The translations under genes were made by a program, and so were the position numbers. Below, piece after piece: positions 5,125-41,288 of a DNA stretch of 41,309 bases. The DNA comes from Acanthamoeba castellanii str. Neff. Taxonomy: Eukaryota > Discosea > Longamoebia > Acanthamoebidae. The stretch is taken from NCBI RefSeq assembly GCF_000313135.1, contig NW_004457568.1, forward strand, positions 182,568 through 223,876. Reading direction: 5' to 3'. The stretch's first letter is position 1. Every line of letters begins with the position of its first letter. Under the pieces are notes generated by a model, which was not told where the DNA came from, did not search any database, and saw only the letters and a program-made list of their open reading frames with translations.

Positions 5125-8100
5125 ATGGTACCGCTTCTTCATCTTCTTACCTCTCGCTCATTTTTGCCTACGAGATCGTGCGTGCCGGTTAGCAATTATT
5201 ATTTTTGTGGCATTCATTTTAATGCTCTGCTCCATCAACGCCTCGCTGACGATAGAGACGTTCCTTTCTCTATTTGAACGTACCACCTTTCTAGGCCGCC
5301 GGTAAGAAGAAGGCAGAATGGGTGAACGTGATGAAGCAGGAGGGTCTGGACGACATGACCCTCCTCGCTAAAGTCAGCAACGACGAGATTTGCAACAACG
5401 TCAAGCTGCGTTACGACAAGGACATCATCTACGTACGTGGCTGCAGTCTGCTCCACATTGCTCTCGCGAGTAGCGCCTTACCCCCCCCCTCTTGCGCTGT
5501 GAATCGACAGACCAGCATCGGTTTCGTGTTGATCTCGATGAACCCCTACAAGGATCTGCCCATCTACACGGAAGGCGTGCTCGAGGACTACATTGGCAAG
5601 AGGTGCCTCCCCTTTCCTCTCTCTCTCTCTCTCCTCGCCCCACCTGCAGTTTGAAGCCGCTAAACATACGCGGTTCCCCCCCCCAACCCCAACAGTCGTT
5701 TGGAGCTGCCGCCCCATATCTTCGCCATCGGCGAAGGTGCCTACCGTTCCATGAAGAACGACAAGGAGAACCAGTGTATCATTATCTCGTACGCGTTTCC
5801 TCCTCCCCGGCTTGCGATCGTGCTCGTACGCCACATGGGGGTTTGGGTGTCTTTGACGGCCACGGTTCTCACTCGCTCACGCGCATGCACCAGGGGTGAG
5901 TCGGGCGCCGGTAAGACCGAAGCGGCGAAGAAGATCATGATGTACATCTCCCACGCCTCGTCTAGCAAGGGCGACGTAGAGCGCGTGAAGCACATCATCT
6001 ACGAGACCAACCCCGTGCTCGAGGCCTTCGGTAACGCCAAGACGCTCCGTAACGATAACTCGTCCCGTTTCGTACGCACGCCTCGTCTTTCACTTCAGCC
6101 CTTTACCAGATCTCGAGATCATCATTCGATTGTTGGTCCCGACTGCAAGCGCTCAGACTAACTCGCTGCTGCTGGTGTACGCGACTCGACTCGTCTCCCA
6201 CAGGGTAAGTACTTCGAGATTCAGTTCAACGCTGAGGGCGACCCCATCGGAGGCATCATCTCGAACTGTACGCGCCACCTGCCTCGATACCCTGCCATTT
6301 GCTCAGACCCAACATTTGCTACCAATGAAAGAAGCGTGGCGTGTAAGCTCACACACCACTTTACCGTACAGTCTTGTTGGAGAAGTCGCGCGTGGTCGAT
6401 CAGTCCAAGGGTGAGAGGAACTTCCACATCTTCTACCAGTTCTGCCGTGGAGCCAACGCCCAGCAGAAGAGTACACGTCCCACCTCAAAGAAGAACATAA
6501 CCCTCATCGAGAGATGCGACTCACGGTCAATATCCCTATTTGGACACATCTGATCAGCGGCGTACGGTCTGCACGAGCCCGAGTCGTTTGCCTACCTGAA
6601 CAAGGGCGAATGCACATCCGTCAGCACCATCGACGACGTCAAGTGGTGGCAAGAGACCCAGGAGGCTCTCAATGTCATCGGCATCTCGCCGCAGGAGCAG
6701 GACTCACTCTTCAAGGTCATCGCCTCCATCCTCTGGCTCGGCAACGTCGATTTCCACGAGCAGGGAGACAAGTCCACCATCCGCGACCAGGACGGTACCG
6801 CTCCCCCGACCCGGCTCGCACACTCCATTTTAGCTATTGTGGGAGACCACTTTCAGGGTTACTGATGATCCACTTGTCGTGTCTGTCTCTCCCCCAACAG
6901 TGCTCGACTTTGTGGCGTCTCTTCTGGGCATTCCGACCGAGTTCCTGGCCAACGCCCTCACCATCCGACAGATCGAGACCAAGCACGGCGCCAGGGCTGG
7001 CACCACCTACGCCCTCAACCTCAACAAGATGCAGGTGTGTAATACGCCGCTCCCGTGCGCCTAGTTGTTCCCTTTTGCCCTTTCCAAATGGCCGTCCGCT
7101 CACATGAGTTACAGGCGATCGGTTCGCGCGATGCCTTGGCCAAGGCCATGTACGCTCGCATCTTCGACTGGCTCATTGCCCGCATCAACCAGGCCCTCGT
7201 GACCACCCAGAAGGTGACGGCCTCGATTGGTGTGCTCGACATCTACGGTTTTGAGGTCTTCCAGGTACGACTGTCCGACCGACACACGTTGCACTTTTTC
7301 CTTTCAACTCGCATGTACTCATGTTCTCCCCTTCACAACACACACAGAAAAACGGCTTCGAGCAGTTCTGCATCAACTACGTGAACGAGCGCCTGCAGCA
7401 GATCTTCATCGAGCTCACGCTCAAGCTGGAACAGGAGGAGTACGTCAAGGAGGGCATTCAGTGGACGCCCATCCAGTTCTTCAACAACAAGATCGTGTGC
7501 GACCTCATCGAAGCCACTGTACGTTGCGTCCCATCTTCACCTTCATTACGTGGTAGGTGTGACGGTTTCTCCGCGCTAATGCATACGGCCGGCGTATCGG
7601 CGATGATGTACAGCGCCCGCCTGGCGTGTTCTGCGTGCTGGACGACGTGTGTAAGACGGTCACCAAGGTGGACCCCGACAACGCGTTCGCCGACCGATTG
7701 TCCGCTTGCAATGGCAACGAGCACTTCAAGCACCGCGGCAAGGCCTTCACCATCAAGCACTACGCCGGAGATGTACGCCTACCTGCAACACTACCGCGAA
7801 GGCCGCGCCGGCGACACACGCGCGCATGGTAGGCGCTTGATCTCACCAAGTTAACGTGGTTCTCTCTTGCAGGTGACCTACGAAGTCGGAGGCATGCCCG
7901 AGAAGAACAAGGACACCCTGTTCAAGGATCTCCTCGAGACCATCAAGCTCGCCGAGAACACCTTCCTCTCGCAGACCCTCTTCCCCGAGGAGGTCGATCG
8001 CGACAGCAAGAAGGCGCCCACTACCTTCGGCTACAAGATCAAGAGCCAGGCCAACGATCTCATCGCCACGTTGATGAAGGCGACACCGCACTACGTGCGT

Positions 8101-36516: not shown

Positions 36517-38102
36517 TCAGTTGCTGTTGGTGGCGTTGAAGGCTTCGGTCATGCGGCGGAGGACGAGGTCTCTGATGTGGGCCGTGTCCTCTTCCTGGTG
36601 GAAGGGGTTCAAGCCCGTGGCGGTGTCGTTCACCTCTGCATCGCCGCCACGTCGCAGTCAGACCAAACACCAAACCTCATCATCATCATCACCATCATCG
36701 TTAGGTCGCGTACCAAGGATGGTGTGGTTGCCCTTCTCGTCGACCACAGCGTCGATGCTCAAGATGTCCAGGCCGCCGAAGATCTTGCTGCACTCATCTG
36801 TTTTGGCGCAGTCGAGTTGAGAGAGCAGTGAGTGAGGAGGACTGCTCACCACCACCGCACACGACACACGACACACGCACGACTGCACACGATTCTCTCG
36901 TTTTCTATTTCGACGTACCGGCCCACAGCTGGTAGAGGGGGGTGACTGGGATGTCCTCCACCTCGGCCTCGCCCACGTTGCCCTTCCACCCGGCCGTGAC
37001 CCTGCGGTAGGCCCTGACCTGGTCCCCCACCCTCTGAATGCGCACGTCGCCCACGTTGGGCACGAACGGCTCCGTCGTAATGTAGTCCGAATACCTGCGT
37101 TGCGTACACAACACGCACACACGGCACACGGCACACACGGCACACACGGCACAAGCATAGCGTCATGACCAGGACCCCTTTCGCAGGAATTTCTTTGCAC
37201 TTACATGGCCATCAGTGTGGAGAAGTCGGCAAAGTCGTCGTCCTTGAACTTCATTTTACCATAGCCCGCGTGCGACGTACCCACCTTGGCCACCTACAAC
37301 CAACCCACACACGCCACACACGCCACACACGCCACGCGGCACGCACACAACTCAACGCCGGTTACGATGGAGCGGCCACTGGAGGGAGGTGGTGGGTGGT
37401 GTGAACCAGCGGGAGGTCCTTGGGCTTGGGCAGGTGGTGCCGGGTGTTGGGGTAGTAGCGGATGGGCACGAGCGGGAACACGTCCTTGCCCAGCTTGCCC
37501 TGGATCCGCTTCAGCTCCGCGATCATCAGCGCCCGCTGCGTGCTGAAGAACACCGAGTCCAGCGAGTTCACTGCCGGCACGTTACCCACTCTACGCCGCC
37601 ATCACCACCACCAGCACCATCGTCACCATCATCAACAGCGCCGTCTTCAGGTGTGTGGTGTACCGGAGGGCCATGAGGGTGTTGAGCCACGACTGACCGT
37701 GGATGCCCAGCACAAAGTTGCGGACGAGGACGAAGTCGGGGGTGAAGCTGCGCTCGTACTTCTGGGAGCTGCCCAGGATGGGCTCGGGCGACGGGTGGAC
37801 GGTGAGGTGCACCGCGTCGTCGGCCCACGCCTCGATCAGGTCCCACTGCGTCTGCTCCACCCGGATCTCCTCCCCATCCGGTCCTGCAGTCCACAACACA
37901 ACCACAAATGAAAAATTAATAATAAATGGATGAATAAATCAATAAAATAAACAGTTTTGACTATTGGTAGGACCAGTGAAAGTGTGAACGGAGTGGGGGG
38001 GCACTGAGCGAACTCACCTTTGAGGCCCTTGAAGACGCGATACCAGTTGTTGGCGGGGTTGCTGTCGATGACCAGCAGGATGTGCATGCGCTTCTTCTCC
38101 AT
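36517..38102 (-). CDS. Synapsin C-domain homologue (ATP-grasp)
   Basis: 318 residues, seven exons: 38102-38018, 37883-37664, 37590-37407, 37293-37205, 37094-36919, 36797-36714, 36635-36517; phases agree. Nearly the whole protein aligns with the synapsin C domain, an ATP-binding fold of the ATP-grasp superfamily. Landmarks in order: MHILLVIDSNPANNWYRVFK, IRVEQTQWDLIEA, SFTPDFVLVRNF, GNVPAVNSLDSVF, KRIQGKLGKDVFPLVPIRYY, the Gly-rich ATP loop PLVAKVGTSHAGYGKMKF (about 161-179), YITTEPFVPNVGDVRIQRVG, AYRRVTAGWKGNVGEAEVED, ECSKIFGGLDILSIDAVV, and the end HQEEDTAHIRDLVLRRMTEA. It lacks the N-terminal A domain with its kinase site and the Pro-rich D and C-terminal E domains of animal synapsins. In animals synapsins coat synaptic vesicles; here a general vesicle or enzymatic role is the safer view. 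Convergent with the unknown gene (91 bp) and divergent from the UNG-PARP gene. Confidence 0.9.
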
Positions 38103-38272: not shown

Positions 38273-41200
38273 ATGGCTGACCAAGAGGGGCGCTGCTGCG
38301 CGAGCTCGTCGTTGGCAGCCGGTCTGAGGGAGGAGTCGTGGTGCCGTGCACTGTGCCCTGAATTCGAGCAGTCCTACTTCGGCGCCCTCGAACGCTTCCT
38401 GAACCACGAGTGGCAACTCAGCAACAAGATGACACCGCCGAGGCGATGACCGTCTTCCCGCCTCGAGAGCAGGTCTTCGAGGCTCTCAACGCGTGTCCGC
38501 TCGACCGGGTCAAGGTGGTCGTTCTGGGCCAGGACCCCTACCACCAGCCTCGTCAGGCCCACGGCCTCGCCTTCTCCGTGCTGCCCCAGGCCCCCACCCC
38601 ACCGTCCCTTCTCAACATCTTCAAGGTACCCTCGTCTTCGCTCTTTTTTCTTTTGGCGCCTTCGCTTTTTTCGAACTAACTTCTTTGTGGGCGCAGGAGC
38701 TGCAGAGCGACCTTGACCTGCCGCCCGAAGCTTTTCCCAACGGCTGCCTGCTCTCGTGGGCCGAACAGGGCGTCCTACTCCTCAACACTTGCCTCACAGT
38801 CCGGTACGACGTCACCTGCCCCGCGGCGTTGACGTGCTGTGTGCTGACGTGACCCATGGCTGTGTGGGTTGCAGGAGGGGCACGCCGCTGTCGCACTCGG
38901 GCAAGGGCTGGGAGATGTTCACGAATCGAGTGCTCGAGGCAGTGAGCAGAGAGGGGGACGGGGTCGTGTTCCTGCTGTGGGGCAAGAGCGCCCAGTCCAA
39001 GAGCCGGCTCATCGACCGCTCCCGCCACTCCATCCTCACCGCGGCCCACCCCTCGCCCTTCTCCGCCGACAAAGGTGCCTGCTTGCTCCTCCACCCTAGG
39101 ACCTGCGTTTTATCTGCCGACCGACCTGCGGTGTGCGGCGATGTGCGGTGTGCGGTGGTGCGCCTCAGGCTTCTTCGGCTGCAAGCACTTCTCGAAGGCC
39201 AACGAACTGCTGATAAAGGCGGGCCATGAACCCATTCGCTGGGCTCTGGCCGACGTCGAGCCCCGATACAACGTTGGCTCTCTTTCGGCGGAAGAAGCGG
39301 CTCTGGGTGTTGATGACGTTGACAGCGCGGACGACGATGAGGTCGGCGACAGCGGCACGCAGGTCGAAGTGCCCCCCGGGGCGAGCGAAGCGAGGAATCT
39401 CTTCGAGGGCCTGGTGTTCGTCGTGTGCGGCCTCATCGCCGAGATGCGCGACCTCCACGCCAAGATTCGCCAACAGGGCGGCGAAGTGGCGCACATCGTC
39501 TCGGCGCAGATCACGCACATGGTGACCACTCAAGCCGAGGTGGACGCGGCCTCCTACAAGGTGGCGCGGGCCATGGCCTACGACCGGGTGCACGTCGTGT
39601 CGGCCGACTTCATTCACGACTCCATCCGCGCAGGAGAGCGTTTGGCCGAAGCCGCCTATACCCTCGCCCAGGCCAGCCCCCAGTCCACCGGTACTGTGGC
39701 AGAGGGCTACACCTCGTCTCTGGCGAGAAGCGAGCTTTCCCACAGGACCAGAGAGCTGCCGGCCTTTGGTGTGGCGGAGCAAGAGCAGAATGGGCCTGGC
39801 CTAGTCGCAGCGGCGCAGGTGCTGGACTGGCCTTCCGCCAACCCCTCGCGGCCGCTCATTCGGGCAAAGAGGAAGGCGGGCGTGGTGTCACGCCTCTCAA
39901 CACCCGCGTTCCAGTTTGCGGCGCCGCCTTCGCAACTGTCGCTGTCCGCACCGGCCCAGCAGGCATCGACCGGGGTGCAGCTTGCGGCCTTCGGTGCCGC
40001 GTCGGCATCGCCTTTGGTCACCCCAGCGCCCGTGCCTGTGGACTCGACCGACGCCGTTCTGCCGAAGCCGGCCAAGAAGGACAACTGGCGACCCCACTGG
40101 GGCCTCGTCAAGATCTACAAGGCGGATGACCCGCACGCCCCGCACTTCCCAAAGGACTATGACATCGTCCGCAGGGACGTACTGAACGTACACGTCATCC
40201 TCGTCATTCTCTTCCGCGTCGTTGGGCTCACTGTGTCGTCATGGTATCGAGTGCAGGTGACTGAGCTGAACGAGAATCGGAACAAGTTCTACAGCATGGA
40301 GCTGCATGAGGGCAAGGAGAGGGGCAAGAGCTACTTCCGCATCTACACCCACTACGGACGCACCGACCTGCTCGATGCCGAGTCACAATCTGGTCTGGAT
40401 TCCACCGGCGGCGTGGCCGAAGAGTCATCGGACCTGTTCGTCGAGCGCAAGGAATGTCGATACCTCCACAGCCTCCAACAAGCCAACGTACGCTGCCACA
40501 CCATCGGCTCCCCACTTTGCCAGTGAACTGTGGGGCGCAGGAGAATAACTTGAATTCCTTTCGTCACTCCATAGTGGATCTACGACCTGATCTTGGAGGA
40601 CAAGTCGGACGCCGAGGCCAAGGGCTACAAGTCCATCAAGCTGGCCGCCGCCACTGTCGGCTCAGAGAAGGGCCGGGCCGTGGACCAGCACACCAGCCAG
40701 GCCAAGGTCGCCCGGGCCAGTGGTGCGCCACCACTTCGTTTTGCCATGGTTGTGATTGGTGGAATGAATGCACTCACCGGCCAATCGACAGCCGACGACG
40801 AAGAGCTCGCAGCTGACAAGGCAACCGCCGCCCAGCTCACGGAGCAGGTGAGGCAGCTGGTGAGGGACATCTACGAGGAGGCGACGAACCAGCTGACGAG
40901 CAAGGTCTCGGCGAAAATCACAGCGCGCGGGCTCGAGACGCCGCTCGGCATCCTCGACCTGGAGCAGATCGCCGAGGGCGAGGCCATCCTGGGCCGCATC
41001 CAGGACCACCTCACCTCGACCGGCGGTTTCGTGGACCAGGGGTCAGTCGCCAAGCTCTCGGGCGAGGTATGTCTCTTCCGCATGCGCCTGCATTCATTGC
41101 ATTCCCTAACCCAGGGATGTGATGTGGTTGCTGACGTCTTCTCTCCTGAATCGTCTCTCCAGTTCTACACTCTGATTCCGCATCGGCTGGGGCGCTCAAA

Positions 41201-41288
41201 AGCCGAGATGGCCGCGGCGATCATCGACACGATCGAGAAGCTGGAGGAGAAGCAGGAGCTACTCCAGCTCATGAAGGACGTGCTCAAG
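38273..41288 (+). CDS. Uracil-DNA glycosylase-PARP fusion (UNG-BRCT-WGR-PARP regulatory), 3' end beyond the window
   Basis: Exons 38273-38625, 38697-38803, 38875-39074, 39169-40178, 40257-40487, 40575-40722, 40792-41066, 41163-41288, continuing off the right edge; about 817 residues are visible. Residues 20-250 are a family-1 UNG: catalytic loop GQDPYH (86-91), [23 protein letters not shown] (212-216, where most UNGs have Leu as the base-flipping wedge) and [16 protein letters not shown] 40-residue acidic linker leads to a BRCT domain (about 293-385, ending [14 protein letters not shown], like the PARP1 BRCT). A basic linker, a WGR domain (about 524-610, [12 protein letters not shown]) and the helical PARP regulatory domain (from about 690; [32 protein letters not shown]) follow. 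The ADP-ribosyltransferase domain should come next. Exon 4 alone spans UNG C-terminus, BRCT and WGR start with no stop. Exon 1 has a one-base slip near 38409 (CACGAGTGGC): the upstream [15 protein letters not shown] and downstream [13 protein letters not shown] belong to one UNG, so a base is missing. Confidence 0.9.

What the first reader, a model, noticed from the sequence alone, without database searches (positions are those of the whole stretch)
38273..41288. Uracil-DNA glycosylase fused to PARP domains in one polypeptide
A full family-1 UNG is followed, without a stop, by BRCT, WGR and the PARP regulatory domain. The exon at 39169-40178 holds the last UNG motif (GFFGCKHF), the whole BRCT and the start of the WGR in one uninterrupted frame, so the fusion does not rest on intron prediction. 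Animal PARP1 senses breaks with zinc fingers N-terminal to BRCT-WGR; here a lesion-specific glycosylase sits in that place. This suggests direct coupling of uracil removal to ADP-ribose signalling at the resulting abasic site. I know of no described enzyme with this layout.
Basis: partly seen in the sequence, partly recalled or inferred. Interest (0 to 1): 0.93.

Follow-up and report, generated by a model that had tools for sequence, protein, structure and literature searches.

The report
Uracil-removing enzyme fused to PARP
In an Acanthamoeba genome, one gene appears to join an enzyme that cuts uracil out of DNA to an enzyme that tags proteins with ADP-ribose, two steps of DNA repair that are separate proteins in other organisms known to me.

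Summary
The fusion is real at sequence level. An eight-exon model (38446-41288, GT-AG, 759 aa) gives family-1 UNG, BRCT, WGR and PARP_reg. The UNG C-terminus and the whole BRCT share exon 39169-40178, with no in-frame ATG between them.

The contig ends with the window. A second, 97.9%-identical copy starts contig C25 and continues into a PARP catalytic domain with H-Y-E aligned. Two further database proteins keep the junction exon open.

Two corrections. The UNG is not "full, without a stop": its N-terminal piece (38273-38449) ends at a TGA in another frame. And the PARP scores best with PARP4, not PARP1 (157.6 against 103.7 bits), so the glycosylase does not simply replace PARP1 zinc fingers.

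On C25 an RPA70-like DBD-A/B segment follows in phase, but only through a weak splice donor: possible, unproven.

One paper lists one Neff accession (L8HFK7) as both UDG and PARP; the passages I saw do not mention a fusion. I read the gene as an "excise uracil, then ADP-ribosylate" enzyme; that coupling is inferred. My searches found no second UNG-PARP fusion and no description of one.

The parts
38273..38449 (+). N-terminal piece of the UNG (58 aa) in a frame that ends at TGA 38447-38449; the frame break lies between this piece and the core
   Evidence: ORF; matches the N-terminal part of UNG homologues, best blastp E 2.7e-7; no Pfam hit by itself
38446..38625 (+). UNG exon with GQDPYH motif (model starts at an in-frame ATG 38446)
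38697..38803 (+). UNG exon with GVLLLN motif
38875..39074 (+). UNG exon with HPSPFS motif (Phe where 81 of the 84 fetched proteins that match HPSPxS have Leu)
   Evidence: also present on contig C25
39169..40178 (+). Junction exon: UNG C-terminus (GFFGCKHF), acidic linker, BRCT, Ala/Pro/Ser-rich linker, start of WGR; no in-frame ATG between UNG and BRCT
   Evidence: open in C25, P0001 and P0002
40257..40487 (+). WGR exon (motif Tyr-Gly-Arg)
40575..40722 (+). end of WGR ([17 protein letters not shown])
40792..41066 (+). PARP regulatory (helical) domain, first part
41163..41288 (+). PARP regulatory domain, second part; the next intron runs into the end of the contig; the catalytic domain follows on contig C25

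Best explanation
This is a gene of Acanthamoeba castellanii in which a family-1 uracil-DNA glycosylase is fused to the N-terminus of a PARP4-like ADP-ribosyltransferase (BRCT-WGR-helical domain-ART). That one reading frame of this layout is encoded is shown by sequence (I put a single polypeptide at about 0.9). Inferred mechanism (about 0.45): the UNG domain removes uracil and leaves an abasic site; BRCT and WGR, held at the same place, bind the DNA or the nick made by AP endonuclease; this relieves the helical domain; the ART domain then ADP-ribosylates the enzyme itself and neighbouring proteins, which releases the product-bound glycosylase and marks the site for the next repair enzymes. Mono-ADP-ribosylation is somewhat more likely than poly, by likeness to PARP4; the H-Y-E triad alone does not decide it.
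For: One exon joins UNG end and BRCT. No in-frame ATG between them: after Met 110 the next Met is residue 255, inside the BRCT at 238-315. Two contigs of the assembly carry it, with 0 gap bases in 1990 exon bases against 20 in 474 non-exon bases. Two further proteins (P0001, P0002; organisms not named), 99% and 98% identical, keep the frame. UNG residues align through GQDPYH, LLLN and HPSP with solved UNGs (229 bits). The catalytic domain on C25 scores 103.3 bits with Pfam PARP, and its His, Tyr and Glu align with those of PARP4. One Neff accession, L8HFK7, is called UDG and PARP in the same paper and is up-regulated under a PARP inhibitor (PMC11165085, passages). In mouse cells PARP1 senses AP sites and breaks made during TDG-initiated repair and modifies the repair proteins, which dissociates them (PMC10762122, abstract).
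Against: The window copy has a frame break inside the UNG, and the N-terminal half of the UNG is on no second contig except a 55-base overlap. Differences between the two contigs fall on codon positions 7/8/11 (26 in 1990 bases), no sign of purifying selection in this small sample. WGR is under the Pfam cut-off, and the PARP1-like protein P0140, which carries Pfam WGR, gave no match to it. P0001 and P0002 may come from the same species, so they are not shown to be independent. Human PARP4 is not stimulated by the nucleic acid it binds (vault RNA; PMC10711553, abstract), so DNA-dependent activation may not hold for a PARP4-like enzyme. I saw no transcript or protein data for this locus and could not read the L8HFK7 sequence.
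Confidence: 0.6

Rival explanations
1. The glycosylase part is broken or inactive: the frame break is real, and translation from 38446 gives a UNG without its N-terminal part that serves at most as a DNA-binding piece in front of an ordinary PARP4-like enzyme.
For: The ATG-38273 frame ends at 38449. The residue after HPSP is Phe, not the usual Leu. The genome has UNG-like matches on four other contigs, so this one could decay. Codon-position counts show no constraint.
Against: GQDPYH, LLLN and HPSP are kept and the core scores 229 bits with solved UNGs. The N-terminal piece is still recognisable at E 2.7e-7. Exons have no gap bases against C25. A break in one contig of a draft assembly may be a sequencing error or one allele (inference).
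Confidence: 0.2
2. Two genes or two transcripts: a UNG transcript that ends inside or before the junction exon and a separate BRCT-WGR-PARP transcript.
For: UNG and PARP are separate proteins elsewhere as far as I know; two PARP paralogues in this genome show no UNG match.
Against: The UNG C-terminus and the BRCT share one exon. No in-frame ATG lies between them. The linker frame is open in the window, C25, P0001 and P0002. L8HFK7 bears both labels.
Confidence: 0.07
3. The protein goes on beyond the PARP domain into RPA70-like DBD-A and DBD-B: UNG-BRCT-WGR-PARP-RPA in one chain, with the RPA part holding the enzyme on single-stranded DNA.
For: On C25 the RPA-like exons follow on the same strand and in phase through a 77-base intron; the joined model is 1331 aa without an internal stop. 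REPA_OB_2 58.5 bits; RPA70 120.6 bits. The segment has no DBD-C match, while contig C146 holds matches to both DBD-B and DBD-C families. The paralogue C113 also reads on past its PARP domain. Human UNG removes uracil from RPA-coated ssDNA through a contact with RPA (PMC8053108, abstract).
Against: The needed donor, GTTACG, scores -4.4 where the other 16 introns score -0.0 to 10.1 (left out in turn), and 240 of 280 background GTs do as well. Without that splice the PARP ends at a TGA (L027 3468-3470), close to where the fetched free-standing relatives end. The paralogue C223 stops soon after its PARP domain. 0 of 11 other PARP loci show an RPA match (sensitivity of that query not tested). The known human contact is with RPA2, not with the RPA70 domains seen here (PMC8053108, abstract).
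Confidence: 0.35
4. Fusion real and both enzymes active, but without direct coupling: the UNG only brings the transferase to DNA, or the pair share timing and place only.
For: Human PARP4 binds nucleic acid through the BRCT without being stimulated (PMC10711553, abstract).
Against: The WGR keeps Tyr-Gly-Arg where human PARP4 has Phe-Leu-Leu (PMC10711553, passages), so the DNA-sensing domain is less changed than in PARP4.
Confidence: 0.3

Closest known systems
PARP4 (vault PARP), PARP1-homology region
   Same: BRCT-WGR-helical-ART order; best score among solved structures (157.6 bits); H-Y-E aligned
   Different: UNG in front; no VIT or vWA match in the scan of the C25 model; WGR keeps Gly-Arg
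Free-standing PARP_reg-PARP proteins of 445-482 aa, 13 of 14 with Pfam WGR (P0124-P0137, organisms not named)
   Same: closest sequence relatives found for the PARP part, 41-46% identity
   Different: no UDG or BRCT in their Pfam lists; the 5 of 14 fetched end at or soon after the ART domain
Family-1 uracil-DNA glycosylase (UNG/Ung)
   Same: core and motifs, 229 bits
   Different: fused to PARP; frame break before the core; Phe in HPSPFS
UNG fused to other repair enzymes (20 of 22 proteins P0003-P0024 also carry PF00730; two are named UNG/endonuclease III)
   Same: UNG as part of a larger repair polypeptide
   Different: partner is another glycosylase-type domain, not a PARP
PARP1
   Same: BRCT-WGR-helical-ART
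   Different: no zinc fingers found; lower score (103.7 bits)

Membership tests
Family-1 UNG | UDG fold with GQDPYH, LLLN and HPSP motifs | tested here: met
   (motif roles recalled)
Family-1 UNG | intact reading frame from start to end | tested here: not met
   frame break between the piece at 38273-38449 and the core at 38446; the second copy lacks this part
Family-1 UNG | uracil excision | not testable with these tools
   needs enzyme assay
PARP/ARTD | PARP catalytic domain with H-Y-E | tested here: met
   on contig C25, not in the window
PARP4 (clade 5) | BRCT-WGR-helical-ART and closest to PARP4 | tested here: met
   by scores only, no tree built: solved structures PARP4 157.6, PARP1 103.7 bits; P0121 PARP4 158, P0140 PARP1-like 51 bits
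PARP4 (clade 5) | VIT, vWA and vault-binding region | tested here: not met
   no VIT or vWA in the Pfam scan of the 1331-aa C25 model; vault-binding not tested. Two Dictyostelium discoideum proteins close to PARP4 also lack VIT and vWA (PMC4245714, section 9)
PARP1 | N-terminal zinc fingers | tested here: not met
   no Pfam zinc-finger hit in either model
RPA1 (for the C25 extension) | DBD-A, DBD-B and DBD-C | tested here: not met
   A and B match RPA70; no Rep_fac-A_C hit
Single fused polypeptide | one transcript across the junction | tested here: inconclusive
   exon, frame and second copy agree; no transcript data at hand; the L8HFK7 double label is indirect

The most novel reading that the evidence does not exclude
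A single polypeptide UNG-BRCT-WGR-PARP-RPA(DBD-A/B): a one-chain uracil repair starter that finds single-stranded DNA, removes uracil and ADP-ribosylates the site, a cis version of the UNG-RPA partnership known in trans in human cells, joined to a PARP4-like transferase.
Probability: 0.33. Interest if true: 0.82.

Novelty: new variant of a known kind. Interest (0 to 1): 0.68.

Why it matters
PARPs are usually thought to sense DNA damage after a glycosylase, and mostly an AP endonuclease, have acted. A natural fusion that places the glycosylase in the PARP chain would make it directly testable whether base removal itself can drive ADP-ribosylation, and whether self-modification frees a glycosylase from its abasic product. 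It would also give a DNA-repair role to a PARP4-like enzyme; the function of PARP4 in vaults is called unclear in PMC4245714 (passage).

Tried and rejected
PARP1-like reading of the transferase: rejected on scores, though no tree was built. Assembly chimera: unlikely, because two contigs and two further database proteins carry the junction. Separate BRCT-PARP gene: unlikely, no in-frame ATG in the linker. RPA fusion: kept only as a possibility because the donor is poor.

Led nowhere: structure prediction of the junction exon with three near-identical rows gave mean pLDDT 34.6, not used. The substitution pattern between the two contigs gave no selection signal. Proteins with both UNG and PARP domains: 0 of the 120 listed (207 found, 87 not listed; only the 7996 candidates sharing most words were scored); two searches listed 3 and 17 proteins, none with a UDG domain. 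No Neff protein with both domains came back, so L8HFK7 is either not held, out of length range or left out. Paper searches; no title or abstract start in the listings shows a described UNG-PARP fusion; most papers were seen as listing or abstract only. The PARP survey PMC4245714 has no occurrence of glycosylase, UDG, RPA or replication protein A in its main text; its figures were not seen.

Full report
What is in the window. The window is the right end of contig C87, and the contig stops at the window's last base. On the plus strand, eight exons from 38446 to 41288 with GT-AG borders join to one frame of 759 aa. Pfam gives UDG at 18-177, BRCT (PF00533) at 238-315 and PARP_reg at 640-757, each over its cut-off, and WGR at 501-535 under its cut-off. 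The WGR region matches 14 of the 20 proteins P0121-P0140 at E 1 or better, the best at E 1e-28; 13 of the 14 carry Pfam WGR (the exception, P0135, matches over 49 residues only). P0140, a PARP1-like protein with Pfam WGR, gave no match.

The junction. The exon 39169-40178 holds GFFGCKHF, the rest of the UNG, an acidic linker, the BRCT and the start of the WGR in one frame. The model's methionines are at 1, 110, 255 and later, so no ATG lies between the UNG end (about 189) and the BRCT start at 238. A separate gene starting by ATG in this exon could not make a whole BRCT.

The frame break. The frame from the ATG at 38273 ends at a TGA at 38447-38449. Its 58 aa match the N-terminal part of other UNGs. 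The core is in another frame. Whether this is an error, one allele or a true loss cannot be told here: apart from itself, the stretch 38100-38900 matches only a 55-base overlap on C25 and a 68% match to another UNG on C124.

The second copy. Contig C25 begins inside the gene. Its first 2470 bases match the last 2464 of the window at 97.9%: 26 substitutions and no gap bases in 1990 exon bases, 7 substitutions and 20 gap bases in 474 non-exon bases. The substitutions fall 7/8/11 on codon positions, so they give no sign of purifying selection; the lack of exon gaps does fit coding sequence. The two contigs overlap end to end and are probably two haplotypes left unjoined (inference). Two further proteins, P0001 and P0002 (organisms not named, perhaps the same species), 99% and 98% identical over the exon, are open over the same junction.

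The transferase. C25 goes on through the rest of the regulatory domain into a PARP catalytic domain (103.3 bits; the half UNG at its start is under the Pfam cut-off, 19.6 against 24.3 bits). Its His (FHGSR), Tyr (MYFGE) and Glu (SEYVIYE) align with PARP4. Against solved structures, PARP4 scores 157.6 bits and PARP1 103.7; the WGR is not part of those best matches. By sequence the nearest found are free-standing proteins P0124-P0137, 41-46% identical. Eleven other PARP loci of this genome were fetched, 8.0-9.5 kb each. With tblastn at E 0.01, 8 of the 11 match the regulatory-catalytic query (L152, L153 and L159 match none of the five queries, so the test is not fully sensitive), 2 of 11 (C113, C223) match the BRCT, 0 of 11 the UNG and 0 of 11 the RPA part. 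The UNG thus looks like an addition in front of a PARP4-like gene (inference). A survey of PARPs notes an expansion of clade 5 in Amoebozoa and A. castellanii members with extra domains, but its main text has no glycosylase and no RPA (PMC4245714; passages and sections 8 and 9). Human PARP4 has H-Y-E yet makes mono-ADP-ribose, and its WGR has lost Trp-Gly-Arg (PMC10711553; abstract and passages); here the motif is Tyr-Gly-Arg.

Beyond the PARP. Downstream on C25 lie exons like RPA70 DBD-A and DBD-B (120.6 bits with RPA70), on the same strand and in phase. The joined model is 1331 aa with no internal stop. Matches to the DBD-C family lie on C146, C79 and C104, not on C25; C146 also has the DBD-B match. 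The link needs a 77-base intron whose acceptor is ordinary (5.2; 44 of 288 background AGs as good) but whose donor is the worst of 17 (-4.4; 240 of 280 background GTs as good). Unspliced, the PARP ends at a TGA at L027 3468-3470. Of the two BRCT-bearing paralogues, C113 reads on past its PARP domain and C223 stops soon after it. I give the RPA extension about one chance in three.

The glycosylase. The core aligns with solved UNGs over nearly its whole length with GQDPYH, LLLN and HPSP kept. The loop residue after HPSP is Phe, while 81 of the 84 fetched proteins that match HPSPxS have Leu. UNG-like matches lie on four other contigs, C124, C200, C75 and C65.

Prior record. In a study of a PARP inhibitor on A. 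castellanii, accession L8HFK7 is listed once among UDG genes and once among PARP genes, up-regulated in both lists; the passages seen do not comment on this (PMC11165085, passages). It may be this gene. I could not read the entry. So the protein may already be in databases, while a description as a fusion was not found in the listings.

Mechanism. Shown: domain order, motifs, second copy. Inferred: that one transcript is made, that both enzymes act, and that the product of the first triggers the second. In mouse cells PARP1 senses AP sites and breaks during TDG-initiated repair and modifies the proteins so that they leave (PMC10762122, abstract); a fusion would do this in cis. Against easy activation stands human PARP4, which is not stimulated by vault RNA (PMC10711553, abstract).

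Verdict. The finding is real and unusual; its main claims hold with corrections on the UNG frame and the PARP type. It is a new domain combination of known parts.

Noticed in passing
36905-37938, minus strand: Synapsin-like gene (three pieces, Pfam Synapsin and Synapsin_C over cut-off) in an amoeba, head to head with the fusion gene, about 170 bases between the two starts as read.
   Followed up: partly
L027 3523-5293 (contig C25): RPA70 DBD-A/B-like exons directly after the PARP, without a DBD-C match.
   Followed up: yes
L027 about 5280-6900: Further open frames; the 296-aa piece tested had no Pfam match; they look like another gene.
   Followed up: partly
L031 3415-3963 (contig C124:12414): Another UNG with an internal TGA, an altered HPSP motif (HLSLYS) and a run-on into further coding sequence; may be of viral origin (guess).
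   Followed up: partly
P0118 (contig C75): Neff UNG with several further Pfam domains (zinc knuckles and GRF finger, names recalled) and Tyr in the HPSPxS loop; a second unusual UNG in the same genome.
   Followed up: no
L151 (contig C223): Two BRCT matches and two WGR-start matches about 2.2 kb apart: a likely tandem duplication of a PARP4-like gene.
   Followed up: no
P0003-P0024: UNGs joined to a PF00730 domain (20 of these 22; two named UNG/endonuclease III); several match the UNG N-terminal piece at two places.
   Followed up: no
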